NCBI GenBank assembly: GCA_037833965.1
Contig: AP031358.1
Span: forward strand, 814,001 to 878,000
Direction: 5' to 3'
DNA from: Marchantia polymorpha subsp. ruderalis
Taxonomy: Eukaryota; Streptophyta; Marchantiopsida; Marchantiales; Marchantiaceae
Length of the DNA: 64,000 nucleotides
The notes beneath the pieces were generated by a model. The model was given only the letters and a program-made list of their open reading frames with translations, had not been told where the DNA came from and made no database searches. How positions within the stretch are numbered: the first letter of the stretch is position 1; every line of letters starts with the position of its first letter. Positions 16,601-36,784 of this stretch are shown piece by piece. The position numbers and the translations under genes were made by a program.

Positions 16601-16669
16601 TATTAATGTGGTTAGTAGATGTGATTCTATAGGTCCTACTTTCGCTATTAGTTCTAAAAAACATAGTAC

Positions 16670-17460: not shown

Positions 17461-18135
17461 ACTTCCGTGGGCTTCCTGTCTTCCTTCCCGGGTTACCATT
17501 CCCTAGGTAGATCCTTCCGTATCATCTTTGAATCCGTTCGCAGGTTGTTGCTCCTACCTCATCATGCCGCCGGCAAGCCTGGATATCCTTCGAGCCATCC
17601 CGCATCTTTCTTGGGTCCTCCAATCACGCATCGCCGATAATGCGGGGGGTCAAGTGATCGGATTGTCCCAGCCGCTCACGTGTCTTCTGCCGCTTATCCC
17701 TGTCCATTCGTGCGACCGTTCTACCCGAAGGATACTCCACCTCTGTACTGGTCCAGTACCTGCGCCGTAACAAGGACGGTCCGCCTCGATCTTCCGTCCA
17801 GGAGGCTCTGCACGGGTGATGGTTATGAGGGCGCGTGCTGGCCCTGGTCCCGTACGTGTGGTTTGCTCCTCGGGATCACCCCCTCATGTTGACCGTCAGC
17901 GGGTATTTTCAGGGGTCAATCTACCATTCTGTGCGGATCCACGTCGGGATGCGTCTGGAGGTAGTGGGATTTCCAAGGAGGGGATGCCGGCACATGTGGG
18001 TTTGGCCATTCCGGTGCAGCCACCCTCCTGACGCGTGGTGCCCCCCTACCGAGATTCAAAATCTGAGGTCGAAGAGCGGAGTGTCTGCCAGGTTCTCCTC
18101 CATGCCTGCGTTCCGTCCAGGCTTCCTCCAGTTAC
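17461..18135. other. No gene identified
   Basis: GC-rich unit interior. Several short plus-strand frames are open, but none resembles a known protein or has a counterpart in the other short unit. Confidence 0.5.
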
Positions 18136-18142
18136 TATAAAG
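18136..18142 (+). promoter_or_regulatory. TATA box upstream of the 18655 gene
   Basis: TATAAAG, followed by a pyrimidine-rich stretch. From here to the ATG at 18655, about 510 nt, I find no ATG on the plus strand, where several would be expected by chance. That is consistent with a genuine 5' leader. Confidence 0.5.
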
Positions 18143-18654
18143 GGCTGCGGGGGTTTCGTTTGTCTTCACCTCTTCATTGTTCCTGCACTGGCCGCTCGCT
18201 CAAGTTTTCTCCTTTCTGTTTTCTGTCTTCACTCCTCGCATCGACGGGCAACGTTTGATTTTTTTGAGTTTCCGGATCCTCGCCGGTGCTCCCTTGTCAC
18301 AGGCCTCTTCCCTACACCCCCAGTCACATTCTAGTCCCCGGGCAAGCGGGGGGGGGGGGAGGAGCTTGCTTCAGAGTTGCGACGTGCGGTGGTTTTCCCT
18401 GTATTGCTGCAGTTGTGTGTCTGCGTGTGCTCCTCGTTCCTCCACGACTTCTTGAGGAGTGCCTCCGACAGTCGTCCATATTTCCTTGAGGGTTGCCTCC
18501 GGCTGCGTGGGCTCCAGGAGGAGGGCGATCCTTGTTCGCGGGTCCCGGTTTACCCTCCTATTAGGGGGGGAGGTTTCCATCCACTCCACCAGGTTCTCTC
18601 GTGTTCTCTTAGTGCCTACACCGAGTTGTCCTCCGTTCGGCTTCTTCACCAGTA

Positions 18655-19029
18655 ATGACTTCTCCGAACGATTCGTGCTTTGTTGCTGCGGACCCTGACT
18701 ACAGTCCAGCCCCCCCAAGAGATTTCGTCATGCCAATCAGTACGATGGTTCTGGGTAGCCATTCCTATCCGCAGATATTCGCGTCAGATGCTGAATGGCA
18801 GGAGCATCTTCCAGTGTGTCGGGTTTCTACGAGTTCCCGTAGCTTTGTGCAGCTACGTTCTTTCCGTGAAGTTTCCGACCTGCTGTCCTATCTGCAATCC
18901 AGACGTACCGGGCCCCCCAGCGGATTGCTTCTTGTTGCTGCGGGATCATCCGATATGGTGGGGGTGCGCAGCTGTCGGGGTTGTCTCCTCCCCATGCTGG
19001 TCTCCCTTCCCCCACCCGCCGGAGCATAG
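18655..19029 (+). CDS. Novel small Cys-bearing protein, 124 aa
   Basis: The start is the first ATG after the TATA box at 18136. The N-terminal half is low-complexity. The C-terminal domain begins at PVCRV and ends in VGVRSCRGCLLP. It aligns without any gap over 61 residues with the C-terminal domain of the protein at 33532-34245, with 23 identities by my count. Conserved points are PVCRV, a SF.E...LL..L core, the GLLL/GLYLL stretch and VGV..CR.C..P. The Cys placement (C near the start, C-x2-C at the end) could bind zinc. DNA similarity is much weaker than the frame conservation suggests. Family unrecognised; function unknown. Confidence 0.55.
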   Translation: MTSPNDSCFVAADPDYSPAPPRDFVMPISTMVLGSHSYPQIFASDAEWQEHLPVCRVSTSSRSFVQLRSFREVSDLLSYLQSRRTGPPSGLLLVAAGSSDMVGVRSCRGCLLPMLVSLPPPAGA

Positions 19030-19249
19030 CGCACCAGAGCGAATGGACACCTCAGTCCATCCGCAGGCATCTCACCTGTTCGGCCGAGTGATCTTCTGCC
19101 AGCTGTCGCCCGGGGTGAGTGGAACATTGCGGAGTTATTTGATGTTCCCACTCGCTCGCCCAAGCGATGCTGTAGTCGAAGATTCCTTGCCGCATACTTT
19201 CCCGGAATGTGGGTGGCGGACTCCGAGTTTCCGGAGTTCCTTTCCCACA

Positions 19250-19640
19250 GGGAACAAGCAATCTTTTGGTGAAAGCCGCTAAGAGCGGGCGGATCCATTT
19301 TTCTGCGTCAACGACGCTAAAAGGCACAAAAGATACAAAGCAACTCCCCCTGCACACTCTGGCACACACCAGCAGTCCGCAAGGAGGCAAAACAGCATAG
19401 GCACAGCCCTGTGAAAGCTAACAGCGTACCAAGCAGTACCACCAAAAACTGGGCGGGTGAGGAACCCCCACCTGTCGATACATGTCTGAACACACTATCC
19501 ATGGTGACCTGCACAGAGAAAGCGAAACAGGGGGGAGCCCTTGACCACCCCTGAGTATGGGTTCACGTCCCCATCTCAAAAACCATCATAAGCAACTTTA
19601 AAAGCCATCAGCAAGTACAGGAGGAAGAGGGAAGTGAGGG
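19250..19640 (-). repeat. Terminal block c: 3' end of LINE copy 2
   Basis: The motif GGGAACAAGCAATCT is at 19250-19264. Hairpin 1 is CCGCT-AAG-AGCGG at 19276-19288. Hairpin 2 is GCGTC-AAC-GACGC at 19295-19307. The block then shares the TTCACGTCCCCA and GAAGAGGGAAGTGAGG landmarks with 5440-5760. Confidence 0.7.
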
Positions 19641-20159
19641 GAATTGGGCGGACAGTAGGTGCCAGTGTCGGACTGCAGTGGAGCCTGTGTTGCCTGGTTC
19701 TGTCATACGCGTAGTCCTTCCTGTGCTGCCCCCCTCTTCATCCAATCCCGGCCATCCATGCCGAGCTGGTCCAGCGATTTCTGATGTTTGTCTTCTTGAC
19801 GCAGCCCCCGACATCTGTCCTGCTCCTACAATGTTTTCCCCCTCTCTTTTTATTTTCCTCGGGTTGCCCACCTGTCGTCCGGGTCGCCAAACCCTTACTG
19901 TTATTTCCATGTGTCCCGTTCTGGTCTGTCCGGGTGTCTTGTACCCGCATTTCCGGCCCTAGGTCGCATCCCTATCTTTGCGCCTGAAATGGCGCTAAAA
20001 AACCCTAACTAGCCATGGTTAGTTTGTTGCTTATTTAGCCGAGGTGACTAGTCGCTACCTACAGGGCCCTGTTGGTTCCATTCCCATCTTCCAGATACCC
20101 TGCTTGGTGTAGTCACCCTCGGCAGCCTCGGTTCCCAGCGGTTGATGCGGTGCCCTATT

Positions 20160-21110
20160 AAGGGCACCTCACCCTAACCCTAACCCTAATCCAACGAAGT
20201 TCCTGTTATTCGGTAGCACAGATCGCCTGCTTTCCGCCTGTGGCTTTTGCTTCGCCCGGATACGCGGGCGTGTGGTGTCCCGACGTCTTCCGCAAAACAT
20301 GCGCCGTAACTCCCGGCGCATGTTGCGCCTATTTGGACGGCGCCAAAAACCCTAAAATCTTGGAGCAACACCCGCCAGCTGCTGCGGGCTCCCAGATCCC
20401 CGTTCGTAGGTTGTCGCTGTTTCTGTCAGGGTCTAGTTCCTGGTTTGACACTGTCATGCGCGCGTATCTCGGCCTGGGTCCCCATCCGTTGTTTGCGCCG
20501 GGTTTAGCGCTATAAACCCGAACCGGACACTGTACGTTACGACCTGCACGTTTGCTGCGCTGGCCGGGGAACCGGAGGCCGGGTTAGAAGTGCCTTTCAG
20601 CCCCTACTTCCCGGCCGGGTTTGTTTTCTTCAGGTGCCCGAAATTCTCGGTATGTAGGACAGTCCTTCTGAGTCCTCCGCCAGAGCCCTGGTCCTGCAGG
20701 TCGCGTAGGCCCCCAAAGCACCGGTCGAGTATCTCGTCAGCCCCTGTCAGACCGGATCCCTCGAGACCTGGCTAGACGAGCAGGTCCCGTGATTGTCGGC
20801 GCTACCTGCTGAACCATGGGTCGTGCAGATCCTCCAGCGCCAAACCCGGCGCATGTTGCGCCAGGAAGTTGGGCGCCCGAAACCCTAATTCCCGGAGTAC
20901 TGTCCTGAGCGTGTTGTGGGCCCTGGTTTCCGGGATCTGCAGTCTGTCGCGGTCCCTTCGCGCTCTTGTCCGTTCCTACCCTTGTGGGATAGGTTTATTT
21001 GTCCGCTCTGGAGCTCTGATCTGGAGACGCCAAATCTTGCCACATACTGCTCCCGATTCTCTGGCGCCTGAAACCCTAAATTCCCGGCAGGTATCACTGC
21101 GCGTGTCTTG
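20160..21110. repeat. LINE copy 2 3' UTR telobox units
   Basis: Repeating elements are a CCCGGCGCATGTTGCGCC-type hairpin (about 20312 and 20842), GGCGCC or GGGCGCC, and a telobox (AACCCTAAAAT at about 20348, AACCCTAATT at 20881, AACCCTAAATT at 21070). An exact three-unit CCCTAA run lies at about 20171-20190. Spacing is irregular (about 180-350 bp). The arrangement hairpin-then-telobox matches the tidier 177-bp monomers at 5960-6560. Confidence 0.6.
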
Positions 21111-22189
21111 CGCCCCGATTCCCGGACCCTTTACTCTGTCTTCGTTCGTCGTGTAGCTGTTCCCGCATCCGTCAGTAGGGGTCGCTGTCACTGCCCTGCC
21201 CACCACGTGTCAGCTCTAGGTTTACACGTTTATGTGGCTTACTACGTGTCATCGTGGCGTTCGCTCTATCTGCCAGTTACCCTGCGGACCTATGCTTGCT
21301 GGCACTTTCAAAGTGCCCTGTCATTCATCGGTACCACCGACGTGGCCCCTTCCAGACCCTGCTCGCTACATCTTCCCACCGGTGGTCCCCCCCTTATCTC
21401 CCTGGGTGAGTCGATCAGCGAATCCAAAGCTTGGATCGTGATTCGCTCCCTTGGATGGCAGAGGATGTCGGACCCCAGCGTCCCCGACACTCTTGCCCGT
21501 CGCTCTGCCCTCATTCTTCAGTGTGTACTCTTACAGTGTGCCGAGAGGTTTCAGTAGTTCTTGATTTCGTTGAGCGTGCAGAGTTCGAATTGGTGCAGAC
21601 AGGCTGCTTGGGAGCGCGTTGGCTGTGCTAGGTAGTGATCGTGTCGCTGCTGTTCCCGCGTTGGATGCACGCCCTCCCCTGCGTAGCTTCTGGTTGCCCT
21701 CACCACCCGGTTGGGGGATGCTGTCCACCGTCACGCATTGCTGGCTAGGTACCTTCTGATGCCGTTTTCCGTTCTGCCGCTCGGTTATGTGCTTCTGCCT
21801 ATATGCTGGTGGCAGACTACTCAACGTGCGAACCTACGACTGCTCCCTTCGAGTCCCTGCCGCTGCGACCTGGGTATATGCGACCTGTGTTTCTTCGATT
21901 AGAATTGCTGTCTGATCTCAGCGTTTCCCATGTATACAGCTGCCACATCCTTCTGGCTGACTGCCTCTTTGAGGAGAATGGAGAATGTGAGTGTCCTGCA
22001 CAGTACGTTGTTGTTTTCTCTGCCAATTCAGCTCAGACGTCCTATAGTTCCCTGGTCTTACTGCCCAGTCCCAATTCCCTCACTTCCCTGTTCCTGCAGA
22101 CCAAGTTAGCATATGATACTCCTGGTGGTCCAAGGGTCCCTCTCGTCGTTTCTCTGCAGCACCAAGTGTCTTATGCCTAACTAATTTTG
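21111..22189. other. LINE copy 2 3' UTR, unique-looking part
   Basis: The sequence aligns in patches with 7190-8000 next to LINE copy 1 ORF2, supporting its assignment to the 3' UTR. No gene seen on either strand. Confidence 0.55.
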
Positions 22190-24730
22190 TCAGGCCCTCC
22201 CCACAGGGAGAGCTGTCACTTCAAGGCCAATCGCTGCTCCCTCCGTGCAGGGGGCTTCCGATCTACCTTCAACCCTATCTACCGTGGCTAGCATGTTTTC
22301 TAGCCAGCGTTCAATCCTAGTTACTATAGACATAGCAATAGCCTTTTGCAAGATCCTAGCTATTTCCAACCATTGTCTCTGCGGGGGGTCAGCACTTGAT
22401 TCCCTCCACTGAGAGATTGCTTTGTCTATCGAGTTCCTAGTCCTGCCATGCACACTTACAGACGCAGTAACGTCTGTGAATACCTTCTGGTTTCGACTGA
22501 GCCAGAGGTGTCTACATATCTCTGCAGTCAACATCCACTGTGCAGCATAGTAGCTGTTTTTCTGATTAGCTAGGCCAAGTTCAATCAAATGAAGAAGAGA
22601 GGTGGTCTTACCAAAGATCGGCTGTTCCTTCATGTTGTGTCCCCATCTGAGGTTGGCAGTTGCTCTCCAGACCTGCTTCACAAAGGGGCAGTCGAAGAAA
22701 ATGTGAGATATTGTTTCAATCGCGGCACTCCCTCTGGGGCACCTCCCATCACCATGCCCCATCTTCGACGCTCTCTCGTTGGAATACAGGGCTTGCTGCA
22801 GCACACGCCAGACAAACAGCTTGTCCCTGTTTACATTTCTGCTGCTCCAAAGAGCTGTGAACAGTTTCACCCACTCCTCCTCCGATTTCTGAGAATTCCA
22901 TTTTCGGTTCAGCTGTATACTGAGTGAAGTGACCTGTGGTTTACCCCTGTACCAGTTGCGCGCAGCATCTGTGAAATTTCCCTTGATGGGCTTGTCTCGT
23001 ATTTTCCAGCCAGCGCTAAGCCGGAGGGGGGTGTTACATAATCCTGTCGCCAAGGTGATTTTATGCAGGAACTCATGCAATGGCGACCCTTCTGCCCTTC
23101 TCTGCTCATTGTGCCTGCCCCTCACAAAGTTACGCTTTAGCGTCTCCTTCCGTCTCCACAGTGTTTCAATTTGGGTGACTTTCAGCTCTCGAAGTCCCGC
23201 CATAATCTGCTTCGTGGCTGCTTCTCCTTCCTGGCGATTGTTTGCCACCAAGCTAACTATATCTCGCAGCGTTATGTACCTGGGGATGGCTACGCCCTCT
23301 GGATCCCAGGTAATATCCCCCTGTATAGCCTTCCAACTTGTCAGTAGTGCCTTTGCTACGTCTGTACCTGCCAGGTGCAGGGGCTGTCTCGTCAGGATTA
23401 GGTCAGGGAGACTATAGTGTTTCCGAACAACATCTCTGTGGTACTTAGCCCTTCCCTGCCTTACCAGGTCTGATAGCGCACCACCCCACGTGCCTGTTTC
23501 CTCGTCAATGACTGAGCCTACCCATTTGCCCATGAGCGAGGAATTCGTATCTGGTAAGCTCCTGATGCCTAGACCTCCTTGCGCCTTAGGTCTACAGACC
23601 AAATCCCAGCGGACAAGCGAGCGTTTCGCCGTGCCCTCCTTGTTGTAGCCCCACAGGAAGTGCCGATACAACTGTTCGACCTTCCTGCATGTGGTGGCTG
23701 ATAACCTGATAATTGATGTATAGAAGGTCGGCTGGGCCTGTAATACTACCTGTAGGAGCACTACTCTTGCCTCAAACGACAGAAGTCGAAGCTCCCACCC
23801 TCCTAGTGTTTTTGAGATTTTCTGTGTACAAAAATCGTCCTGCTGGTGCTTGCTCACCTCAAGTCCTGTTGGTGCGCCGAGATACTTGTTGATCTCCCCT
23901 CGCTGCATCAGGGCGCAGCCCGTAAGAGGGAGCCAATCAGGTGGTCGATCCATCCCCAGGAGTAATATGGATGATTTTGAAAGATTAAGCCTTGCTCCAC
24001 TGCTCCCTTCGTACTTAGCAAGCACTACTCTTAGTTCTTGGAATGACTCAAAAGAGTCATCAATGAACACTCCCATGTCATCGGCAAAAAGAGAGTAGTC
24101 GAGTATCACCGTCTCCCCCACCTGGTATCCTCTGAGTCTTCCTGCCTGAAAGCTCAGCTTCATTTCAGCCATTAGTGGCTGTGTAGCTAGAACAAACAGC
24201 AACGGCGCCAGAGGGCATCCCTGTCTCACCCCCCTTCCCACGGGGAATCTGTAAGTCTTGGCTCCATTTATGTGTACTGCCGTAGATGCCCCTAACGTGA
24301 GGCCCTTAACTAGTGCAGTAAACTGTTGCCCAAGTCCGCACTTGTTCATGGTATCCCATAAGTAATTATGTTCTACCCTGTCATATGCCTTTTCAAAGTC
24401 TAGTTTGACAAACATCCCCTTGCGTTTGATCGTTTTTGCAGCATCTTGTGCCATCCAAAGGGCAAGTACATTGTCCAGCATCTGGCGCCCTTTTATAAAC
24501 CCTGTCTGCTGTGGAAAAACTATTTTTTGGAGCAAAAGCTGAAGCCTCCCTGCTAAGATCCTTGCTATGATTTTATAGTCTGTGTTTAGCATCGTCAGTG
24601 GCCTCCAATCCTTGAGCTCCGTTTTATTAACCGACTTCGGGATCAGCCGAATCATGCCCTCCGTGACAGTCTCAGCCAGCACACCCTCTTCCCAAAACTT
24701 GTGCACCATGTTGACATAAAACTGTTTCAT
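22190..24730 (-). CDS. LINE copy 2 ORF2, reverse transcriptase half
   Basis: The 846 codons carry the RT domain: WRPLTMLN at about 42-49, motif A KLDFEKAYD (Asp111), motif B RGVRQGCPLAPLL (166-178) and motif C FADD (215-218). A C-terminal zf-RVT region is recognisable from GDGRCPRG and IETISHIFFDCPF. No RNase H domain is recognisable. The frame runs directly on from the endonuclease half, separated only by a TGA at 24737-24739 and two sense codons. It is shown separately because of that stop. The product would copy LINE RNA at a nicked target. Confidence 0.85.
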   Translation of the reverse strand: MKQFYVNMVHKFWEEGVLAETVTEGMIRLIPKSVNKTELKDWRPLTMLNTDYKIIARILAGRLQLLLQKIVFPQQTGFIKGRQMLDNVLALWMAQDAAKTIKRKGMFVKLDFEKAYDRVEHNYLWDTMNKCGLGQQFTALVKGLTLGASTAVHINGAKTYRFPVGRGVRQGCPLAPLLFVLATQPLMAEMKLSFQAGRLRGYQVGETVILDYSLFADDMGVFIDDSFESFQELRVVLAKYEGSSGARLNLSKSSILLLGMDRPPDWLPLTGCALMQRGEINKYLGAPTGLEVSKHQQDDFCTQKISKTLGGWELRLLSFEARVVLLQVVLQAQPTFYTSIIRLSATTCRKVEQLYRHFLWGYNKEGTAKRSLVRWDLVCRPKAQGGLGIRSLPDTNSSLMGKWVGSVIDEETGTWGGALSDLVRQGRAKYHRDVVRKHYSLPDLILTRQPLHLAGTDVAKALLTSWKAIQGDITWDPEGVAIPRYITLRDIVSLVANNRQEGEAATKQIMAGLRELKVTQIETLWRRKETLKRNFVRGRHNEQRRAEGSPLHEFLHKITLATGLCNTPLRLSAGWKIRDKPIKGNFTDAARNWYRGKPQVTSLSIQLNRKWNSQKSEEEWVKLFTALWSSRNVNRDKLFVWRVLQQALYSNERASKMGHGDGRCPRGSAAIETISHIFFDCPFVKQVWRATANLRWGHNMKEQPIFGKTTSLLHLIELGLANQKNSYYAAQWMLTAEICRHLWLSRNQKVFTDVTASVSVHGRTRNSIDKAISQWRESSADPPQRQWLEIARILQKAIAMSIVTRIERWLENMLATVDRVEGRSEAPCTEGAAIGLEVTALPVGRA

Positions 24731-24736
24731 GTGCGG

Positions 24737-26257
24737 TCAAGTTTTCCTCAGTGCTTCCGCTGAGATACCATCCACCCCTGGGGCTTTGTTCAGAGGAAGA
24801 CTGAACAGCACGTCCTCAATTTCTTTCTCAGTGGGGAGTGCAGACAGCATAGTGCGCTCCGAGTCTGAAACGTGATTCTCTACTCTGTGCAGGATGTCTT
24901 GGCGCGTTTGGCAGTCTTCTGCTGTAGGAGTTTGCGCCGTGTACAGGTCGGCGTAGTACTTCCCTACGGCGCACAGGATCTTCGGCTGCTCCCGAGTTTC
25001 CTCACCAGTGGGTAGGCGCAACTGCAGTATTTGCGCTCGCGCCGCGTTTTGCCTGTGTATATTGAAAAAGTACTTGGTCGGTGCGTCGCCTAAGCCCAGA
25101 TGCTTGACCCTTGACCACAGGCGAATCTCCACGTCCCGCTCATGCTCCCTTATTCTCTTTTCAGTTTCAAGCCAGTCGAGCCTCTCTAGCTGTGACTCCG
25201 TAAGGTCTCCTAGGCGATTTGTGTGCAGGTCTTCAATCTCCCGCTGCAGCTCGTGGATACGCGACAGCCTTGCCCTCTGCTCCTTCTGTTTTGCACGTAG
25301 GAAGTTCCGCACCTGCGTAGTCCCTTTGTAGTAGAGTTTCCTGGGATCATCCTTCCTGTGCGCTAGCTTCCCCCATATCTTCTTGATCTCTTCCTGGATC
25401 TGAGGCTTAGCCAATAAAGATGGGCTCCACTTGAAGGTGGTCGGTCCTGTGAGAGACAACCTGCCATCTTCACAGACCACCGTTCCTACTTCTATAGAAG
25501 CTGACACTGGGAGATGGTCTGAAAGTGTATTCTCAGCGTTATGGTGAAGGTAGCGCGCTGCTGCTAACCACCTTCCCCCATGTGAAAAATAAACCCTGTC
25601 AAGTCGTGCCCATCTAGGATCGCCCCCATAAGCAGACCATCTCGTATGGAGCGGTCCTCTTGTTTCTGCAACTATCTCTCTCAGGTCAATGAGGTTATGT
25701 TTTGCTCTGAACTCTGTGAAGGTCAGGCCCTCTGCCCCCCCAAGTACCTGGCGCTCTCCAGAGGCATCTGTGGAGCGTTCCACCATATTCCAGTCCCCAC
25801 ATAATATAATGTTCGTGTGTGGGAACATGTTCCGCAGGTGGGCCCAGTGAGCTGCTCTAGCGCCTGGTGTGTGAGGGCCATATATCGAAGCTATGTAAAT
25901 TTCGTGCCCTCCTTTCTCGATCTGCGCCCAGGTAACATATCCATCCTCCGATGTTCCCTGTTGTAGTACTCTAAAGCTCCTATGTATCAATAGTGCTGTG
26001 CCTCCTGTTCCCTCCCCTCTAACTCCTTTCAGGCCTGGTGAGCAGATTGTGTGTAATTCCCTACTCAGAAGGTGACCGATTGCAGTCATTGAGAAAACAT
26101 CTAGCTTATGCTCTTGAATCGCAATCACATCAGGTTTGTCCCGTGCATTTCCTACAAAGTCCTTGACTTTATACTTCCTGGTAGAGCCATTAAGACCACC
26201 CACGTTCCAGGAAAGGATATTCAACGTGAGTGGCATACCTTGCTGGGCGTCCGTCAT
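24737..26257 (-). CDS. LINE copy 2 ORF2, endonuclease half
   Basis: This 506-residue APE-type endonuclease and linker keeps the expected catalytic set: N18 (LSWN), E49 (IQEH), Y126 (YGPH), D155 and N157 (GDWN), D247 and H248 (SDHLP). The frame ends at a TGA at 24737-24739 where LINE copy 1 has TGG, a single G-to-A change on the coding strand. Without that stop ORF2 would be about 1355 codons. The start codon overlaps the ORF1 stop as ATGA. The product would nick target DNA to prime reverse transcription. Confidence 0.85.
   Translation of the reverse strand: MTDAQQGMPLTLNILSWNVGGLNGSTRKYKVKDFVGNARDKPDVIAIQEHKLDVFSMTAIGHLLSRELHTICSPGLKGVRGEGTGGTALLIHRSFRVLQQGTSEDGYVTWAQIEKGGHEIYIASIYGPHTPGARAAHWAHLRNMFPHTNIILCGDWNMVERSTDASGERQVLGGAEGLTFTEFRAKHNLIDLREIVAETRGPLHTRWSAYGGDPRWARLDRVYFSHGGRWLAAARYLHHNAENTLSDHLPVSASIEVGTVVCEDGRLSLTGPTTFKWSPSLLAKPQIQEEIKKIWGKLAHRKDDPRKLYYKGTTQVRNFLRAKQKEQRARLSRIHELQREIEDLHTNRLGDLTESQLERLDWLETEKRIREHERDVEIRLWSRVKHLGLGDAPTKYFFNIHRQNAARAQILQLRLPTGEETREQPKILCAVGKYYADLYTAQTPTAEDCQTRQDILHRVENHVSDSERTMLSALPTEKEIEDVLFSLPLNKAPGVDGISAEALRKT
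26254..26257 (-). promoter_or_regulatory. ATGA stop-start overlap of ORF1 and ORF2
   Basis: The minus strand reads ACAATGACGG: ORF1 ends in TGA and ORF2 begins with ATG, sharing two bases. The same overlap is preserved at 12081-12084 in the decayed copy. Stop-start coupling is known for some LINEs (for example SART1); its use here is inferred. Confidence 0.7.
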
Positions 26258-28461
26258 TGTTCACTGAAGGCCGCCCGGCCGTGCTCAGTATCTCCCTTGT
26301 ATCCTACGATGTCTGTTTTTGCCGGTGAGGTGCTACCGAGATCACTACTTCTGACCTTGTTCGGCTTTTGCCCCCCACTCGCTGCCCTTGCTGCCGCCTT
26401 AGCTGCTCGCATCTCCCTTTTGCGTATGGTTGAGGTCTTCATACTTAGCGTCTTTCCCCCCAACACCGCCAGCGGCCCCTGTCTAGTCACTTGTTTGCGA
26501 GTGAACTTTGCCCTGATACCTTCTGTCAGCGGGTGGGGTTCATCATGCTCCGCTAGCACTGTTTCCTCGTAGCCCTCCTTGTGTGTTGGTGCTTCTTCAA
26601 GCCCCTTCTGCACTTGCACGGGAATGGAGTCGACATGCTTCGCACCCCCCTTTTGCGCCAGGGTTTCCAGGAGCTGTTTCGGGACCAGCGGCGAGACTGG
26701 GGGAGTCCAGTTCTCCCGTGCCTCTTCCGGTTCGACCTGACCACCTGTGGCCCTAGGGAGGTTTTTTGCCATCTTGGCACGCCCTCCACTTTGCTCTCCA
26801 TCTGCAACAGGTTTGCGCTTGCTACCTGCATCCGCTGCCTGGACCTCTCCAACTCCCTCACCTTGTTGTCGAGGGGCAACCTTCTTCCTGCGCACCAGGG
26901 GGGCTGGGGAGGTGGCTGTGGTTTGCTCATCTACTACTTCCTTCCGTGTTTTGCTTTGCAGGGACGCCGACGTGAGTGCAACCTTGGTGAGTGGCGCCAC
27001 TGACCCTTCCTTCTTCTTTTCGTAGAACTGTTCAATTGTGCCCGTTCGGCGTACTGATTGTGCGTCCTGAAATGTGGCTCCGTTTCCTGCCTGCTGGGGC
27101 AATTGTGCATTCTCTCTCAGCTCCTCCCCTCGTTGTTTCTTTGGTGCAGTTTCTTCGCTGTAGACTTTGGCGCCCTCTGTCCTGTTAGTAGTCACATTCT
27201 GCTCCTCCTCCTTGTCGCCGAGCTTCGTTTGCCCAGGTGTGACCTTCCTCCAGTATCCGTCGCTCCTGCTCTTGGTGCGCGGCTGCTGGAAGAACTGTGA
27301 TGTGGGACGTGGGGTGTCCGCAGGTGGATTGTTTTCCCTCCACTTCCCTTTTGCGCTGGCTGGGAGCTCTTGAGTCTCTGCTGCAGGTTGAGGCACTCCC
27401 TGCCTTGGGCGATCACGTTGGGGTCTCCTGCTTGTTCCAGCTCCTTCCCGAGGCGGGAAGAGGGGATCTCCTTTGCAGTCGACCGCAATGTGCCCAAACC
27501 TGCGACACTTAAAGCAGGAATTGGCCAGGTGTGTGACATCGAAGGGTATGTGCTGTACTGTACCTTCTAGTGTTACTTCCACAAACGGTGGGGGCAGCAT
27601 CCCTCTTGGCCACTCTAGACAGAGGCGTATGATGGGCCGACTGCTTCTCTCGATGCTTGCTGGCCCGATGAGCACCTGCCCCAGAGTTTCTGCTATTTCT
27701 TTGATCCAGAAGAGCTGTAGCTGTGAGAGGTTAGTGAACCGCACCCACACCGGATACACTGCTGGGTAATACCTTAAGTCTTCCGCCTCCAGGGTCCACT
27801 TAACTATGATGAAATCTTGGCGAAGATAAGTGATACGTGTCCTTGATAGAACTCTATCCCTGTCCGTCTGCGACTGGAATCTGATGTGGTAGTTCTTGCT
27901 TCCTATGGCAGTGATCGAGAGGACCTTCAGTCCCTTGACCTTGGTAAGTGCTTCCTCTGCCCACTCCTGTACTTGTGGTGTGCTGAGTCCTCTGTCTAGG
28001 AAGCATAAAACAGCTGTGAGATTTTCAGTTTCCTCCTTCTTCTTCAGTGTGTCATCTCTTGTGATGACTAGACTGACCTGACGGAGCATGTTAAGTGTGT
28101 TCTCCAGATCAAGCTCCTTCTCCACTTCGGGGTCAACAGGTGTCTCCTCCGTGGACTCATCATCCGAGCTGCAGTCTCCCTGATCATTGTCACTTGTTTC
28201 GTCTTCAGACGAGTCCTGCATATCCTCCATGGTGGCTTGACTTCTGGTTGGACACCTTGGCCCTCCGCTGATAGCTGTAGATTGCCCATGCCTCTCCCCT
28301 GACCCTGCAGGAAGGGGGCTCCTGTGTTCGATGCTTATCACTGGTTGCTCCTCCCGAGGCCCAAGTGTAGTGTGTATCAGTTGTTCTACATCTTGCTGTG
28401 CAGGGCTAGTTTCAGCGGCCATTTGTGGGGTTCCATAAGGATCCCCCATTAGTGCACTCAT
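26254..28461 (-). CDS. LINE copy 2 ORF1, nucleic-acid-binding protein, 735 aa
   Basis: An N-terminal acidic Ser/Asp/Glu tract (about 79-116) precedes a DUF4283-like domain (about 120-310). A CCHC zinc knuckle follows with C316, C319, H324 and C329 (CFKCRRFGHIAVDC). The remainder is a long Lys/Gln/Ala-rich, low-complexity tail. Plant L1 ORF1 proteins have this order and are thought to coat the element RNA. The stop TGA shares bases with the ORF2 ATG, so ORF2 is probably translated by termination-reinitiation. At 735 aa it is long for the family, owing to the tail. No interruption is seen. Confidence 0.85.
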   Translation of the reverse strand: MSALMGDPYGTPQMAAETSPAQQDVEQLIHTTLGPREEQPVISIEHRSPLPAGSGERHGQSTAISGGPRCPTRSQATMEDMQDSSEDETSDNDQGDCSSDDESTEETPVDPEVEKELDLENTLNMLRQVSLVITRDDTLKKKEETENLTAVLCFLDRGLSTPQVQEWAEEALTKVKGLKVLSITAIGSKNYHIRFQSQTDRDRVLSRTRITYLRQDFIIVKWTLEAEDLRYYPAVYPVWVRFTNLSQLQLFWIKEIAETLGQVLIGPASIERSSRPIIRLCLEWPRGMLPPPFVEVTLEGTVQHIPFDVTHLANSCFKCRRFGHIAVDCKGDPLFPPREGAGTSRRPQRDRPRQGVPQPAAETQELPASAKGKWRENNPPADTPRPTSQFFQQPRTKSRSDGYWRKVTPGQTKLGDKEEEQNVTTNRTEGAKVYSEETAPKKQRGEELRENAQLPQQAGNGATFQDAQSVRRTGTIEQFYEKKKEGSVAPLTKVALTSASLQSKTRKEVVDEQTTATSPAPLVRRKKVAPRQQGEGVGEVQAADAGSKRKPVADGEQSGGRAKMAKNLPRATGGQVEPEEARENWTPPVSPLVPKQLLETLAQKGGAKHVDSIPVQVQKGLEEAPTHKEGYEETVLAEHDEPHPLTEGIRAKFTRKQVTRQGPLAVLGGKTLSMKTSTIRKREMRAAKAAARAASGGQKPNKVRSSDLGSTSPAKTDIVGYKGDTEHGRAAFSEQ

Positions 28462-28849
28462 AGGAGAAGTTACCTATTGTGCAGGTGCTCCCCTGAGTAT
28501 GTGATTGATTGTTGGTTGCTTGCTTGCTTGGATTTGCTGGTGTTGCACTTCTGCTCCCTTCAGTTGTGCTTTCAAAGCCTGTTCGCCCCCTTGCAAGTGT
28601 TGCCGTGCACGCCTCGCCTTGAGTGCAGATAGTCGGAGCTAGGACAGTGTGAGCGAACACACTGTCAAACTGACCAAACCCTCTCAGCCGACCTTTTCCC
28701 GTTCTAAATTTCTGGTAAACCCTAATTCGGATCTGGAGGTCGCTGGGAGCCGCACTGGGTGGGAGTCTGCGCTGCTTGCTGTGCCGTAAACGAGGTTCGT
28801 ACTCTTGCTTGTACCCGGGTTGCAGAACTCTGAACGTGAACTTTAGCGC

Positions 28850-30100
28850 ACAGACGCCTAGACCCTTGTTGTGCCTGATTAGGGTTAGCACTTGTTCAGT
28901 TCAGACGCACCCATTGTGCATCGCTTTTGGGCCTTATGCGTGACTCTTGGTGCTGCTGTGTGCTGCAGCTGTCAAAAACCCATCACCGGCTGCAGATTGA
29001 GGAATGAAGAGCCGTGCGCTCCGACGCCTGGACCTTTTTGCGCCGGATTAGGGTTGGCCCGAATCCACCTCGAGCTCTCTCATTGTTGCGCGCTCGAAGC
29101 AAAATCTTGCTCCTTCGTCGTGCAACTGCATGTCACCAGTTGCAGGTCTTCAAAATTGTTTCCTTCACGTGCAGACGCCTAGACCTTCCTGCGCTAAATT
29201 AGGGTTCGCTCTAATCAAGCTCGTGCGCTTTCACTGTTGTGTGCTTAGATGCCCTGTATGTCTCCGCTTGTGAAATCGTGAATCTGCGTGTTGTTTGTTG
29301 GTGTTGTGTCGACGCGGGCCGAACAGCGCCTGGACCTTCTTGCGCTAGGGTTCAGTTGACCCCTAAGTGCGCCTTTCATCGTCCTGCGCGATCTGTTCGT
29401 CTTGCATGAACTTCAACATGTTGACCGTGTGCTCGCTGCTGCAGCCTTGCAGGCTTGCCGTCTCTACCCTCTGTCACTGCTCGTTTCGTCGATTTAGCCC
29501 ACAAACGCCTAGACCTTTTGCGCTCATTAGGGTTAACCCTAATGAGCAGGAGGAACCCGAAATGCCTAGACCTAATGCGCCTGGGCGGTACAACACCCTG
29601 GAGGGCGAAATTCAGCTTAGAGCCTGCACCGACCGGTCGCAGCAGAGCTACACCCAGCGGTGAGTGCTTCCCTGCTAGCTCCGGCGTCAAATCCACAATT
29701 TGGATTCTGACCTAATTAGCCACAACGCCTAGACCTTCTTTGCCCTAGAACTTTCTAGGAGCGTCGCTGTCGTGGTGTGTGCGTGACCTTCGACATGTTG
29801 ACCGTGGGGTCGCTGCTGCCATCCTGCCGGCTTGCCGTCCCTGCCCTATGCCGTTGCTAGTTTCGTCGATGTAATCAAGAAACGCCTAGACCTTTTGCGC
29901 TCATTAGGTTAACCCTAATGCAGTTAGGAGTGCTGCGTTCGCCCTGTCTTCATCGACTGTCTAGCCACGCCTGCAGCTTCCGTGTTGTCTCCAATGACGG
30001 TGTAAACTTCAATGTCGTAGAATGTCGAGTGCAGACCTCGAATCGTCAAGCGCCTGAGCCTTGCAGCGCAGGAATTAGGGTAAACCCTAATTCCATCTGC
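28850..30100 (-). repeat. LINE copy 2 5' UTR telobox monomer array
   Basis: Eight diverged units are anchored at the core [A]CGCCT[A/G]GACC: 28854, 29024, 29175, 29325, 29515, 29725, 29882 and 30049 (the last GCGCCTGAGCC). Spacings are 150-210 bp. The core is followed by a TTGCGC element and a telobox; at about 29532 and 30066 the telobox is the palindrome ATTAGGGT(T)AAACCCTAAT or ATTAGGGTTAACCCTAAT. The array lies where the LINE promoter should be, so the units may be promoter monomers. Confidence 0.7.
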
Positions 30101-30802
30101 AGCAACTCAGACACTGCTCGATGTCGCTCGTGTCACCCCGGGGCCGTTCACGCGCTGCAGCTGCCGTGCATGCTTGCCAGGGACCCCTAAAGTCGAAGTG
30201 TGTCTGCAGTGTCGTCGAATGTCGAGGTCGAGGTCGTCGCCGCCTGCCCGCCGCCGCTGTTCGTAGTGCCGTTTATCGCCGTTTGTTGTTGCTGAAATTC
30301 TTATGTCGAAAATGTCAATGGAATGTCGCCTGGACCCCCCGCTGATAGTGAAATCAGTGCATGTATCGTTGTCATGAGCGTCAATTGTCTGCATAGAGCC
30401 TAATGTCGTGTGTTGATGGTGATGCCGAACTCTTTGCGCTCGAACCCCGCCGCCGCTTCTGTTCTCCTGAGTGCGTCGTGCTGCTGCTGCCAAGGTCGCT
30501 GTTTCACACCGATGTTACTCCGCACGTCTCGTTCCCGTCATGGATCCGCGAAACCCTAAAAAGAGTTTTCATCGTCGACTTAAGTTCCTGCTTCCCGCCG
30601 CGCCTAAATGTGTGCTCATCGTGCTCGTCTGCTCAAGCCCGATCGTTCTCGCTGCTTCCTAGCTTACCCAAACCTCGTGCGCTGCCCTCTAGATCGAATT
30701 CCCTGAGCTGTTTCTCTGGTTTCCCGTGGTACTCGAGGTTTCCTGCCAGGCTCTCAGTCACCGCGTTTCGCGGAGCTGTTTCTAGGGTTGACTGCCTGCA
30801 TC
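30101..30802 (-). other. LINE copy 2 extreme 5' UTR
   Basis: This part is matched by 4560-5364 in LINE copy C, including CACCGCGTTTCGCGGAGC and GTTTCTAGGGTTGA right at the end. No gene. The shared end point with copy C fixes the element's 5' terminus. Confidence 0.65.
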
Positions 30803-31200
30803 GGGAACAAGCAATCTTTTTTGTGAAAACCACTGGGAACAGTGGGAGATTCCATTTTTGGGCGACCCAAAAGGCCACCAACGAAACAAAGCCCCGGAGA
30901 GAGGCAACAGAACATGCAAAAAAGAAAGAAAGAAAAGCACCCCGAGCCCGCCTAGCCCGGCTGGGTGACACGCCACCCGGCCAGAGAGGGGGGGGGACAG
31001 GGAGCAGAGCGCAGGCACGGCCCTGCGCGGGCCAGACAGTGTGGCAGGAGTACAAGGTCCAGCGGAGAGACGCTACCTCTCCCGGGCCAATCCAGCACAC
31101 AGAGGTCCCATAGGGAAGCAGCAGATCAGCATCGAGCGGGGGCTGGGCAACGTGCTATCGACCTGGGACTATCGTGTCCATAGTCGGAGTACGCCCAAGG
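30803..31200 (-). repeat. Terminal block d: 3' end of short unit 30803-34503
   Basis: The motif GGGAACAAGCAATCT is at 30803-30817. Hairpin 1 is CCACTG-GGAA-CAGTGG at 30830-30845. Hairpin 2 is TTTTGGG-CGA-CCCAAAA at 30856-30872. Beyond about 30890 the similarity to the other blocks fades. Confidence 0.7.
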
Positions 31201-31369
31201 GGCCCTGCTAGGGTGGTGGTCAAGAGGCGAAGTTCAGGTCCGGACTATGTGTCCAAGTCGTTGTGCTCCGGTTCAGAGTTAGGGGTTGCAGAGGTATCTA
31301 AAGATTCAGTTCGCACGTCCCGTCCGCGTGAGGGGGCGGGGGATGAGTCATGGTTGGGATCATGGTTGT

Positions 31370-31445
31370 GGTCGTGCCGTGGTTGTGGTCGTGGTCGTGG
31401 TCGTGGTCGTGATCGTGATCGTGGTCGCGGTCTCGGTCGTGGTCT
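31370..31445. repeat. GTGGTC microsatellite
   Basis: About a dozen imperfect GTGGTC or GTGATC units. They create Arg-Gly-rich and Val-rich open frames that should not be taken for genes. Confidence 0.9.
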
Positions 31446-31686
31446 TCTACAGCGTCAGGGGCAAGGTTTTGATCCTGCACGAGGTCATCGTCGGCATCAG
31501 GGGGGGGAGGCGGAGCGGGATTCGGGAACCCGTCCATCCATCGCCACCGGTCGGGGGGTGGCCGCATCTGTCGCGGTAGCAACCATTCCTCACGGCCAGA
31601 ACCTCCACGTCGAATACAGCTCGTTCAGAGGGAAGCCCCCTAATGTCCGGGGTTTGTGCGGGTTTGCAGGTTCACCGGTTATTCAG

Positions 31687-33127
31687 TTATTCAGCATGGT
31701 CCTGGTTCACCTAGTCGTGGTACGTTTCCTGAGTCAGTCATCATAGGCCTGCATTCAGATGGTGAGGGCGTGTTTCTCTCGCTTCGAACGAACTGGCAGA
31801 GCCTCCCGCGGAGGACGTCGGTGTCAGCTGTCGCATTCCAGCCTCATCCCAAAAACACGGTTAGAATCCAGTCACCTTTCCCTCCGTCCTGCCAGATGAG
31901 GCTCCAAAAAATGAACAGTTCTGGGTCCGAGTCCACCAGGAGCTCCATGACCTCCTCCTCTCTCCGCCAGGGGCCCATCGAGAATGCTCGTCGTCTTGAT
32001 CCGCTCCTCGCAGTATAGTCTTGATCACCGGTGTGGTTCTCCCGAGTTGTGGGCGGCCTGGGTAATGTATAAACAAAAGCAGTCGGGGCAGGCCCGCAGG
32101 ACAGGGGGGTGTCCGGGTTTCTGGGCAGAGCTGGGAGGAGGGGGGGAGGGAGGAGAGGAGTGGGGAGAAGTCGACTGAGGTTAATCTCTCTGCTCCTGCT
32201 TAAATAGTATTCCCGGCTTCGAGCCTAGTCCCTCCGCCGACTTCCCACGCGTCAAGCGGACGAGGCGTGTATGTTCGAGGAAGGAGGGCTGGAGGAGGGG
32301 GGGAAGAAGCGAGAAGCGGGGGAGGAGGAGAGTGGCGGCGTGCCCTCGAGTTCCCTCCGCCGGCGAAGTGCTCCGGCTTCATCCGGGTGACACTCCGGTT
32401 CGGGGGTTTTTATGTTTCTAGGGGGTCAGGCCACCAGAAAGCTCTTGCGACGGCGTGCACGCACGTGCCGGGAGGGGGGTGTGGGAAGCTCATCTTGCAT
32501 ACGTGTGGAGGGTTTTTCCCGGTTGTCCTCCCGGTCGTCTCCGAGAGGAAGTAGATCACCTGTAAGCCGCCGGCACCTGCAGTCTGCGCCGGGGAGGCCG
32601 AGACCGACAGGTTTCTGCAGGGCACGTGGCCAGAGTGGCTCGTGCGAGGGAGGGCTGCCCAGGGGAGTCGCCGCAGCCACCCCGGCCGCAATGTCTCGGC
32701 ACGGGGTGTCGTTCATCCGCCGATCGTGCGTGTTTATCTCGCGCATGCAGATCAGAGTGGTCGTATCCAGATCCTCCCCGTACGAAGGGAGAGCCTGCGG
32801 ATAACGGGACGTCAGAGCATGTCCCCCAGTCGCACACGCTCCGCGGCTACATTCTCCCCGGGATCTGCGCTGCACCTGCTCTCGATCGTGCTGCCCCACG
32901 CGCGAGGAACCGCCCTGGCGCACTCCAGCCGTATTTGTCCGGCGTATAAAGTCCACGGGGGGCTCCCTCGGGACCCCGGTGGCGAGGGGCAAATCGGGTG
33001 TGCAGGCCAGGTCATGGGGACAGGCCGAGAGTGCGGTGGCGGGGGGGTCAGCAGCCACCTCAGTCGCCGTTGATACGTTCCCGAGGGGGTCACCCTCATA
33101 TTTGCTCCGCAGCAGCGGGTGTTCGGG
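31687..33127. repeat. Module M, copy 2
   Basis: Direct repeat of 14712-16170 with the same end points. The long minus-strand frame 32426-33226 is open here but not continuous in copy 1, so I do not call it coding. GGCGTATAAAGTCCACGG is preserved in both copies (near 15970 and 32942) and may be a TATA element. Confidence 0.65.
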
Positions 33128-33246
33128 ATTGTCAGGAGGGGGGGGGTGGAAGAAAGAAAAAGAGGGAGAGGGAGAGAGGGGGGGAGGCTGGGTTTTCCTG
33201 ATTCCTGCATGGCCGTTGCCACACACATCCGAGCCTTAGTGCTAAG

Positions 33247-33254
33247 TATAAATA
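33247..33254 (+). promoter_or_regulatory. TATA box upstream of the 33532 gene
   Basis: TATAAATA, flanked by GTATAAATAGAGG, a good match to the plant TATA consensus. From an expected start site near 33280 I find no ATG before 33532. That first ATG is in frame with the conserved domain. Confidence 0.6.
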
Positions 33255-33531
33255 GAGGGGGGAGAGGATGGCTGTATTGTGTTTATCTTCTCGCTCACGC
33301 AGTCCTGTGCACCTGCTAGTCGTTTTGCATCTGTTGGGGCATAGGATCCGCGCAGGTGGGGTGTGAGACGAGGAACGAGCAGAGGAGCGAGCAGGGGGAA
33401 GGAAGGGAGTGGGGGAAGGAGCCGAAAGGAGGAGAGGCAGGAGAGGGGCGAAGTGCAGAGTGAGGTTTAGCGGAGTGAGGTTTAGCGATAGAAACAGGTG
33501 TGCATCGAGAGGGACAGATCCGCAGGGTGGA

Positions 33532-34245
33532 ATGCCAGGAGGGGGGTCGGTGCCGGATCCGCTATATTCTCTATATGGTGGGCAGTTCGACCCTCGTCGC
33601 GCTCCCACGCGTGCGGACGCTGCACGCCTCCGCTTCGGCCAGTTTCCTGGTGTACAGGTGTCAGAGAGCGGGGGTCACTCGGACGAGATAGCCAGTACCT
33701 ATTCCCCTCAGCCCCTGTCCGGGGGGCTGAACCTAGGCGCCATACTCCCCGCCTCCGCTCACCGTCCTCGTAGCCCTGTCCGTGTCCGAGGGGGGGATGC
33801 CGGTCCGCCGGGTTCCGCAATGTCCGTGTACACTTTCGGGGGCCGTGAGCAGGAGGCGGAGAGCCAGGCCCCCTACCCATCCCCAAATGGGGTCGGGTCG
33901 AGAGGCCCTTCCCCGGAGCCTTACGCTCCAACTCCATTGCCGTCCCCTACGTACAGCCCCAGTCCGCCTCCCGCACTCGTGGAGGCCGGTGGGTCATCCG
34001 AGTGTCCTTGTCCTGTGTGCCGTGTACCTTGGCCGCACGGCTGGACCGTCCGCTTCTACTCATTCGACGAGCTACGCCAGCTCCTGGTACATCTGCGACG
34101 ATACCAGCCCGAGCTGTATCATGGGCTGTACCTCTTGGACGGGGACATTCCAGGGTCCGTTGGTGTGTTTTGTTGTCGCCGCTGTTCTCTGCCCGCGTCC
34201 TATCCCGTGCGCGTTGATGTTGGACTACCTGGGCCGGCCCTCTGA
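33532..34245 (+). CDS. Novel Cys-bearing protein, 237 aa
   Basis: The frame is open upstream to 33409 but only from a GTG; the first ATG after the TATA box is 33532. Residues up to about 155 are Pro/Ser/Gly-rich and probably disordered. The C-terminal domain begins CPCPVCRVPWPHGW, continues RFYSFDELRQLLVHLRRY, and ends GVFCCRRCSLP. It matches the 18655-19029 protein over 61 ungapped residues. Four to six Cys in C-x-C-x2-C and C-C-x2-C arrangements suggest metal binding. It lies on the strand opposite to the LINE genes. I recognise no family, and the role is unknown; accessory gene of the array units is one possibility. Confidence 0.55.
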   Translation: MPGGGSVPDPLYSLYGGQFDPRRAPTRADAARLRFGQFPGVQVSESGGHSDEIASTYSPQPLSGGLNLGAILPASAHRPRSPVRVRGGDAGPPGSAMSVYTFGGREQEAESQAPYPSPNGVGSRGPSPEPYAPTPLPSPTYSPSPPPALVEAGGSSECPCPVCRVPWPHGWTVRFYSFDELRQLLVHLRRYQPELYHGLYLLDGDIPGSVGVFCCRRCSLPASYPVRVDVGLPGPAL

Positions 34246-34503
34246 CCAACTCCTGCGTATAAAGCTGGGACGCACCGGGTTCGAGAGAGACGTTTCTGCT
34301 CCGGGGCGCCCACCTCCGTGCGCTACCGAGGGGGTATCAAGTCGTGACAAATCCAAGCACACCACACAACATCGCAATCACAACGTTTTCTTTCGCTTTT
34401 TGCAGGGGCCCGTCGTCTCTACTGCTAGCAGCCCGGCACCGCTCCAGGAGGGATTTTCGAAGAGTCGACCCGTGGTACCTACTGGTGCGATCGAGCAGGG
34501 CCT

Positions 34504-34518
34504 GGGAACAAGCAATCT
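34504..34518. repeat. Lone terminal motif at the edge of the GC-rich array
   Basis: An exact GGGAACAAGCAATCT is followed after a few bases by ordinary AT-rich sequence with no hairpins. Either the motif is the insertion target from which the array grew, or it is a nearly completely truncated unit. Base composition changes within a few tens of bases here. Confidence 0.7.
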
Positions 34519-35160
34519 TTGAGACAAGCATATGACTACTGGCAGATCAACCAAATAGCCAACCTTTGCATCAAACTTGAGAACCAAAAGGAGAAGCAAG
34601 AGAACATCGATATGACATCATCTCTTTGTAAGCATATTGTTGATTTTTATCATTACAATTGGAAAAAATTATTATAACCTGATCACGGTAAATTAATCTA
34701 ATTGTTACCACATACTCATTTATTTGTAATTTTGTTTTGTCTCATACAATAAGAAGTATCTTTTATGTTAAACATTAGAATTATTAAATAATTAGAAATA
34801 GTGTATATACACGAAATATTAACATTGTTCAAAAAACTATGAAATCTAAAGTGTGTATCTCCAAGAGACAAATGCATGGTAGTTGTATAGGGATGTGTTA
34901 TATAAAAAAAAAAAAAGTAATTGATGGTAACACTTGACTCTAAACTAGGGCGACACATACCTCTAGTTATAGTCCAGTTCTTTCATAGAATTATTTCAAT
35001 GAACACATCACCATAGAAGTCCTACACATATATGACATATTCTACTCAATAACAAATTTCCAATTATTCTTTCTCCCAATCTATTCCCACTTTCTATAAT
35101 TATTCAATTACTTTGAACCTATAATGTTTAAGTTAATGTATACCAGATCTTAGGATTGTG
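34519..35160. other. AT-rich DNA, no gene seen
   Basis: Low-complexity AT-rich sequence with a short A run near 34905. No open frame of interest. Confidence 0.7.
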
Positions 35161-35184
35161 GTCAGATGGCGAACAAGTTTAAAA

Positions 35185-36771: not shown

Positions 36772-36784
36772 CTCCTGATAAGCC

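What the first reader, a model, noticed from the sequence alone, without database searches (positions are those of the whole stretch)
18136..34245. Undescribed Cys-bearing protein family encoded on the plus strand of array units
Two ORFs 15 kb apart (18655-19029 and 33532-34245) share a 61-residue C-terminal domain that aligns without gaps at about 38% identity, keeping PVCRV at its start and C-[R]-x-C with a following LP at its end. The surrounding DNA is too diverged for this to be a recent duplication. Each ORF begins at the first ATG after a TATA box; the leaders (about 510 and 250 nt) contain no ATG by my reading. An ungapped frame, conserved Cys, a TATA box and ATG-free leaders in two diverged copies argue for a translated gene. 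I recognise no family.
Basis: partly seen in the sequence, partly recalled or inferred. Interest (0 to 1): 0.85.

Follow-up and report, generated by a model that had tools for sequence, protein, structure and literature searches.

The report
Antisense gene inside rDNA-targeting LINE retrotransposons
Two look-alike protein genes in a liverwort genome turn out to be a conserved extra gene, written on the opposite strand, of a jumping element that inserts into ribosomal RNA genes.

Summary
In detail: the two ORFs share 23 of 61 residues without gaps (2000 shuffles: mean 5.0, max 13). The genome (Marchantia polymorpha or very near) holds at least 24 copies, 13 with the whole domain unbroken. Between old copies the frame is under purifying selection (A vs C8 dN/dS 0.10; C9:792 vs C4:822 0.12). 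ORF B alone is weakly supported.

It is not a family of host array genes. The "array units" are L1-type LINEs, some head to tail, whose 3' ends join AAGATT, a site about 40 bases into the 18S rRNA gene. All 15 orientable Cys copies lie antisense to their LINE; six elements show RT, antisense Cys ORF and 3' end in that order. ORFs A and B sit in short pieces that keep the 3' part of such elements. One 11-kb copy next to an 18S start on C6 has all three frames open.

Best reading: an antisense accessory gene of an 18S-targeted plant LINE, the non-LTR counterpart of antisense extra ORFs in plant LTR elements. The protein's function is inferred only. No protein relative was found outside Marchantia records and two unnamed contigs.

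The parts
33532..34245 (+). ORF A, 237 aa: Pro/Gly/Ser-rich N-terminal part and C-terminal Cys domain (domain about 34003-34224)
   Evidence: purifying selection against the C8 copy
33247..33254 (+). TATA box (TATAAATA) of ORF A, leader of about 250 nt without ATG
18655..19029 (+). ORF B, 124 aa, Cys domain about 18805-19020
   Evidence: selection weak and not frame-specific
18136..18142 (+). TATA box (TATAAAG) of ORF B, leader of about 490 nt without ATG
5374..16186 (-). LINE copy E1 (type I 3' end at 5374-5477; RT 8016-10550, EN 10560-12084, ORF1 12084-14284), 9 stops in the aligned frames; no Cys ORF found in its 3' region
16196..19250 (-). short element E2 (about 3.06 kb, type III 3' end at 16196-16299), no RT match, carries ORF B antisense; probably a 5'-truncated copy
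19264..30803 (-). LINE copy E3 (type I 3' end at 19264-19361; RT 22190-24730, EN 24737-26257, ORF1 26254-28461; EN and RT lie in two separate ORFs); no Cys ORF found in its 3' region
30817..34504 (-). short element E4 (about 3.7 kb, type II 3' end at 30817-30918), no RT match, carries ORF A antisense; 31687-33127 is 86% identical to E1 14712-16169
34514..34553 (+). reverse complement of the 5' end of the 18S rRNA gene (41 alignment columns, 97.6%), the target at the 5' side of E4

Best explanation
The Cys family is the antisense accessory gene of a group of L1-type LINEs that insert into the 5' part of the 18S rRNA gene. An element reads, in its sense direction (the same as the rRNA): 5' region, ORF1 (DUF4283-like), ORF2 (endonuclease, RT, zf-RVT), then on the opposite strand the Cys ORF running tail to tail with ORF2, then a 3' region with a hairpin just before AAGATT of 18S. 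Shown: position, orientation, 18S junctions, 3' hairpin with covariation, selection on the Cys frame in the A/C8 and C9:792/C4:822 pairs. Inferred: the sense RNA may be co-transcribed with pre-rRNA by Pol I, while the Cys gene needs its own Pol II promoter on the other strand (TATA boxes at A and in the four B-like copies examined, not in most others). Inferred, weaker: the protein is a small nuclear or nucleolar, perhaps zinc-binding, regulator acting in trans for the element (against silencing, or on its RNA or its expression), as proposed for antisense ORFs in plant LTR elements. Element membership about 0.85; the regulator role about 0.35.
For: Of 22 family places in fetched DNA, 15 could be oriented against LINE features and 15 of 15 are antisense (they stem from about five subfamilies and are not independent). 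Six elements show RT, Cys ORF and 3' end in order (C6:62, C9:777, C9:792, C9:807, C4:804, C4:810); C6:62 and C9:807 also have EN and ORF1 matches. A profile of the 3' end finds 25 places. Of 24 junctions printed, all have AAGATT (the profile contains its complement, so this part is circular), and 6 run straight on into AAGCCATGC of 18S (5 exact, 1 with one change), 2 more reach 18S after a short filler. The 54-base 18S 5' end has 12 exact matches, 11 within 100 kb of a contig end. At C6:70946-71180 spacer, 18S start, a 28-base tandem repeat of the target and the element 5' end follow one another. 3' hairpin: 94.5% of cells paired and covariation score 0.419 against 0.201, 0 of 500 shuffles each. 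dN/dS of the Cys domain 0.10 (A/C8) and 0.116 (C9:792/C4:822), RT of the latter pair 0.108; the other forward frames of A/C8 give 1.96 and 2.45. The C6:59894-70946 element has open stop-to-stop frames of 747 aa (ORF1), 1367 aa (ORF2) and 172 aa (Cys, antisense).
Against: No expression data could be seen. The three type I elements with near-complete RT matches (E1, E3, C9:737), which include the LINEs of this window, show no Cys ORF (7 regions scanned, best E 1.8), so the gene is not universal. In the second pair with RT to compare, C6/C4:810, the Cys domain (0.25) is less constrained than RT (0.099). B is weakly selected and not frame-specific. C3:14043 lies in 10 kb without any LINE match. 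For the hairpin, the count of pairs with both-sided changes (3 of 5) is reached by 50 of 500 shuffles, the further pair types by 493 of 500, and the structure was predicted from the same alignment. Fold model confidence is moderate (pLDDT 66, 4 sequences) with no PDB match at E 0.001 or below, so function and zinc binding are open. One reverse frame shares much of the A signal (0.19 against 0.10), as expected from shared third positions.
Confidence: 0.8

Rival explanations
1. A host gene family that happens to lie in LINE-rich, rDNA-like clusters and is duplicated with them, or was once caught by one element and now hitch-hikes without use to it.
For: Clusters on C9 and C4 contain several copies in tandem; one lone copy (C3) has no LINE match within the 10 kb fetched; three near-complete LINEs of type I lack the gene.
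Against: 15 of 15 orientable copies have the same orientation and place inside elements, on four contigs (C4, C6, C7, C9), including copies next to an 18S start on C6; 3' ends and 18S junctions bound the copies.
Confidence: 0.1
2. The short elements E2 and E4 are a separate non-autonomous lineage that carries the Cys gene and uses the LINE machinery through a shared 3' end.
For: E2 and E4 have a LINE-like 3' end and no RT match; non-autonomous R2 derivatives are known (PMC3414825, title and start of abstract in a search listing).
Against: The Cys gene is also in elements with RT; the 5' junctions of E2 and E4 lack the 5' start shared by long copies, which fits 5' truncation. No full-length element of type II or III was seen, so this stays open.
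Confidence: 0.15
3. The ORFs are not translated; they are remnants of a sequence conserved for another reason (antisense RNA, promoter).
For: B shows no frame-specific constraint; 9 of 24 places are broken; the public model of A removes most of the domain.
Against: Third-position excess and dN/dS near 0.1 in the claimed frame for two independent old pairs, other forward frames of these pairs at 0.85 to 2.45 in the domain.
Confidence: 0.07

Closest known systems
Antisense additional ORFs (aORF-3R) of plant LTR retrotransposons: maize Grande gene23, RIRE2, Retand (PMC7264820, passages read)
   Same: An extra ORF between the polymerase gene and the 3' end, antisense to the main genes; for Grande with its own promoter and a nuclear protein; no clear similarity to known proteins.
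   Different: Those are LTR elements; here the host element is a non-LTR, L1-type LINE with an 18S target. No sequence relation was tested.
Human L1 ORF0 (recalled; papers only in a search listing)
   Same: A short protein from the antisense strand of a LINE with its own promoter.
   Different: ORF0 lies in the 5' UTR (recalled); here the gene lies 3' of ORF2 and is kept between copies with dS of about 0.8 to 0.9.
R2-clade R8 in 18S rRNA genes of hydra (PMC5035012, one passage read), and R7 (recalled)
   Same: Non-LTR elements specific for the 18S rRNA gene.
   Different: Here ORF2 has an Exo_endo_phos (APE-type) endonuclease with RT and zf-RVT, and ORF1 a DUF4283 domain; the named nearest RT relatives are liverwort proteins; no antisense gene is known to me in R7 or R8.
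Plant L1-type LINEs (description recalled)
   Same: Domain order: DUF4283 and CCHC in ORF1; EN, RT and zf-RVT in ORF2.
   Different: 18S site specificity, hairpin 3' end without a poly(A) tail, antisense Cys gene.

Membership tests
Non-LTR retrotransposon, plant L1 type | RT with zf-RVT, APE-type endonuclease, ORF1 with DUF4283 and zinc knuckle | tested here: met
   in E3: RVT_1 E 1.9e-33, zf-RVT 3.9e-13, DUF4283 4e-07, zf-CCHC 0.002 (below its cut-off); Exo_endo_phos 6.1e-13
Non-LTR retrotransposon, plant L1 type | position in an RT tree within the L1 clade | not tested
   no tree built; homologues listed only, 120 of 637 rows
rDNA-specific non-LTR element | insertion at one fixed site of an rRNA gene | tested here: met
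   24 of 25 profile hits printed: all with AAGATT after the 3' end (partly circular), 6 continuing into AAGCCATGC or one change from it, 2 reaching 18S after filler, the rest running into another element or other sequence; 18S upstream side at C6:70974 and window 34514
rDNA-specific non-LTR element | intact 18S on both sides of one insertion | tested here: inconclusive
   upstream side with spacer seen at C6; the next fetched stretch on the downstream side reads N and was not pursued
Antisense accessory ORF (aORF-3R-like) | antisense, between polymerase gene and 3' end, recurring in copies of the element | tested here: met
   15 of 15 orientable copies antisense, 6 with RT, Cys and 3' end in order; not found in type I
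Antisense accessory ORF (aORF-3R-like) | own promoter and transcript | tested here: inconclusive
   TATAWA in 6 of 14 copies; no expression data
Zinc-binding domain | four ligands in a metal-site geometry | tested here: inconclusive
   two invariant and one nearly invariant Cys only; model pLDDT 66, no PDB match

The most novel reading that the evidence does not exclude
A two-strand (ambisense) LINE: an 18S-rDNA-targeted plant non-LTR element that encodes, against the direction of rRNA transcription, a Cys-domain protein kept by selection because the element needs it in the nucleolus, for example to hold its rDNA copies open for expression or to counter silencing.
Probability: 0.4. Interest if true: 0.85.

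Novelty: new variant of a known kind. Interest (0 to 1): 0.7.

Why it matters
Antisense extra genes are known from plant LTR elements and, in the 5' UTR, from primate L1 (recalled). One placed 3' of ORF2 in a LINE, with selection in some lineages near that of the RT, would mean that such genes arose in unrelated retroelements and do something useful for them. The element also gives Marchantia, a tractable plant, an 18S-targeted LINE with open reading frames, so the role of an antisense retroelement gene and the host's handling of rDNA insertions become testable. It also shows that a published gene model in this region is part of a transposon.

Tried and rejected
Rejected: viral origin (no IMG/VR locus encodes a relative; a lone US22 hit at E 0.2 in one of 11 members is treated as noise). 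Rejected: the 263-aa minus-strand ORF beside the C8 copy as a partner gene; it belongs to a dispersed repeat (8183 first-look candidates). Rejected: the C8 gene as cargo of an LTR element; the two roughly 775-bp TG..CA repeats around it show no matching flanks by eye. Looked for a diverged Cys ORF in type I elements: none. Rfam gave no match on the window and nothing above a family's gathering score on six loci. Fold search: 0 of 394 listed matches at E 0.001 or below. Searches for 18S-targeted LINEs in Marchantia or other plants and for antisense genes in LINEs showed no description in the listings (two searches listed 12 of 43 and 12 of 47 papers; I saw titles and abstract starts, and passages of PMC6739443, PMC5035012 and PMC7264820 only; the library lacks most subscription journals). 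Searches looked for gene clusters and for the gene name and gave nothing on it. A too permissive motif scan was discarded.

The 24 family places are read together; two weak rows (C4:15295694, E 0.17; C6:14880651, E 0.23) were dropped. C9:732 and C8:8979 were not in fetched DNA. The 7 of 22 fetched places that I could not orient are C6:88, C8:8997, C2:8294, C3:14043, C4:14869, C9:761 and C9:787. Of 25 profile hits one partial hit (C9:749369) was left out of the junction list and of the hairpin alignment.

Mended on checking: the number of elements in full order (6, not 5), of junctions running into 18S (6, not 8), of contigs (4, not 6), the site (about 40 bases into 18S), the intron ends, and the RT comparison of the second pair.
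Full report
What was checked. The shared stretch is 61 residues without a gap, 23 identical; 2000 shuffles give mean 5.0 and at most 13. TATA boxes at 18136 and 33247 and ATG-free leaders are real for these two.

Where we are. A homology search with ORF A returns two proteins: a Marchantia polymorpha subsp. ruderalis protein, AXG93_815s1410, identical to A for 185 aa, and one from an unnamed assembled contig (72% identity over 35% of the query). A profile search adds one more, P0003, close to the C4:14871 copy. The public model of A skips 34087-34405 and so removes most of the shared domain. The assembly has 241 Mb in 9 contigs, and the window lies at C9:814001-878000.

The family. Protein searches of this genome give at least 24 places: 11 on C9 (732-848 kb), 5 on C4, 3 on C6, 2 on C8, one each on C7, C2 and C3. 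At 13 the whole domain is unbroken, 2 are unbroken fragments, 9 carry stops or frameshifts; at C9:755 and C4:804 the part before the domain has stops. In an alignment of 11 copies V, C, E, L, C, L and P of the domain are invariant, and the first Cys of CxxC is nearly so. Pfam gives nothing for A and B up to E 1, and for 11 members only two single hits at E 0.12 and 0.2; no PDB sequence match up to E 10.

Selection. Nei-Gojobori estimates for the domain: A/C8 0.10 at dS 0.89; C9:792/C4:822 0.116 at dS 0.81; C6/C4:810 0.25; B/C9:769 0.48; B/C4:14871 0.49. A frame control on the last 240 nt gives, for A/C8, 0.10 in the claimed frame and 1.96 and 2.45 in the other forward frames; for C9:792/C4:822, 0.13 against 0.85 and 2.38; for C6/C4:810, 0.25 against 1.52 and 2.21; for B/C4:14871, 0.45 against 0.38 and 2.16, with a reverse frame at 0.28, so B has no frame-specific signal. 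One reverse frame follows the claimed one in A (0.19), as expected when third positions coincide. RT of the same elements gives 0.108 (C9:792/C4:822) and 0.099 (C6/C4:810): equal to the Cys domain in the first pair, clearly lower in the second. N-terminal parts are freer, 0.2 to 0.95.

What the array units are. Many homology blocks between copies stop at one motif. It reads, on the strand opposite the genes, as the end of a LINE followed by AAGATT. In 6 of 24 junctions AAGATT continues as AAGCCATGC or one change from it, 2 more reach 18S after a short filler, and the others run into another element or other sequence. On the other side of some copies comes the start of 18S. The 54-base 18S start, typed from recall, has 12 exact matches in the assembly, 11 of them within 100 kb of a contig end, plus 5 with 1 to 3 mismatches. 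At C6:70946-71180 spacer, 18S start, a 28-base tandem repeat of the target and the 5' end of an element follow one another. A profile of the LINE 3' end finds 25 places in the regions fetched. A 5-bp hairpin lies just before the end: in 23 distinct sequences 94.5% of cells pair, against 82.3% in shuffles (0 of 500), covariation score 0.419 against 0.201 (0 of 500), and versions slid by 1 to 3 columns pair at 40.4% or less. Both-sided changes occur in 3 of 5 pairs, a count that 50 of 500 shuffles also reach, and the number of further pair types is not above shuffles (493 of 500).

Gene content. With the window's LINE proteins as queries, RT, EN and ORF1 were mapped beside the Cys copies. Of 22 family places in fetched DNA, 15 lie beside a 3' end or RT that fixes the element's strand, and all 15 are antisense. 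These 15 come from about five subfamilies and are not independent. Six elements show RT (some in part), Cys ORF and 3' end in order: C6:62, C9:777, C9:792, C9:807, C4:804 and C4:810; C6:62 and C9:807 also show EN and ORF1. The element at C6:59894-70946 has stop-to-stop frames of 747 aa (ORF1), 1367 aa (ORF2) and, antisense, 172 aa (Cys); a tandem copy beside it is 99.9% identical over 9.9 kb. Seven places could not be oriented.

The window itself. Four elements lie head to tail: E1 (5374-16186) and E3 (19264-30803) are LINEs of type I; E2 (16196-19250, ORF B) and E4 (30817-34504, ORF A) are short pieces with type III and II 3' ends. E4 borders an 18S start at 34514-34553. E2 and E4 lack the 5' start seen in long copies and are most simply 5'-truncated; a separate non-autonomous line is not excluded. 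Type I elements show no Cys ORF, so the LINEs next to A and B are not of the types that own these genes.

Mechanism. Element sense equals 18S sense, so the LINE RNA could be part of a Pol I transcript, while a gene on the other strand needs its own promoter; A, the four B-like copies examined and one type IV copy (at -1103) have TATAWA within 1.5 kb of the domain, the other 8 of 14 have none. The Pol I and Pol II reading is inference. The protein (Pro-rich or variable N-terminal part, C-terminal domain with three Cys) was modelled from a 4-sequence alignment: strands and helices, mean pLDDT 66.4, no PDB match at E 0.001 or below. I consider a nuclear regulator most likely, by analogy with antisense ORFs of plant LTR elements; there Grande GENE23 is nuclear and transcribed from its own promoter (PMC7264820, passages read).

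Known relatives. R8 of hydra sits in 18S (PMC5035012, one passage). The named nearest RTs are from Marchantia, Riccia and Calypogeia, then Cryptomeria and other plants (120 of 637 rows listed, some unnamed). Eight literature searches on this question showed no description of an 18S-targeted LINE in plants or of an antisense gene 3' of ORF2 in a LINE in their listings.

Noticed in passing
window 36786-41561 and 45008-49808: A 4.8-kb inverted duplication (92.9%) that contains an F-box/kelch-like gene, 48778-50034 (-) with F-box matches and a partial copy at 37185-37784 (+).
   Followed up: partly
window 705-1496 (-): A 263-aa ORF from a very abundant dispersed repeat (8183 first-look candidates in the genome), no Pfam match.
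   Followed up: partly
window 34087-34405: The public gene model AXG93_815s1410 has a GT-AG intron that removes most of the conserved Cys domain; perhaps a model error, not tested with RNA.
   Followed up: partly
C9:758337-763933 and 784069-789663 (window 34509-37660 in part): A 5.6-kb module, 99.3% identical in two copies, with inverted 18S starts at both ends and a broken Cys relic inside.
   Followed up: partly
L043 (C8:8993523-8994297, 8998377-8999150), L044, L036/L037: A roughly 775-bp TG..CA dispersed repeat, like a solo LTR, recurs beside Cys copies on C8 and C4.
   Followed up: partly
LINE 5' junctions: Between AAGATT and many element 5' ends sits GCTTG or GCTTGTTC, perhaps template-switch filler from 18S; several long copies share a GC hairpin CTCCGCGAAACGCGG near the 5' start.
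   Followed up: no
C9:739277-740308 (+), in a type I element: An open 344-residue frame with 22 Cys, unlike the Cys family in the profile scan; E1 and E3 have no equally long open frame there.
   Followed up: partly
window 62722-63210: A 97% identical direct duplication of about 218 bp.
   Followed up: no
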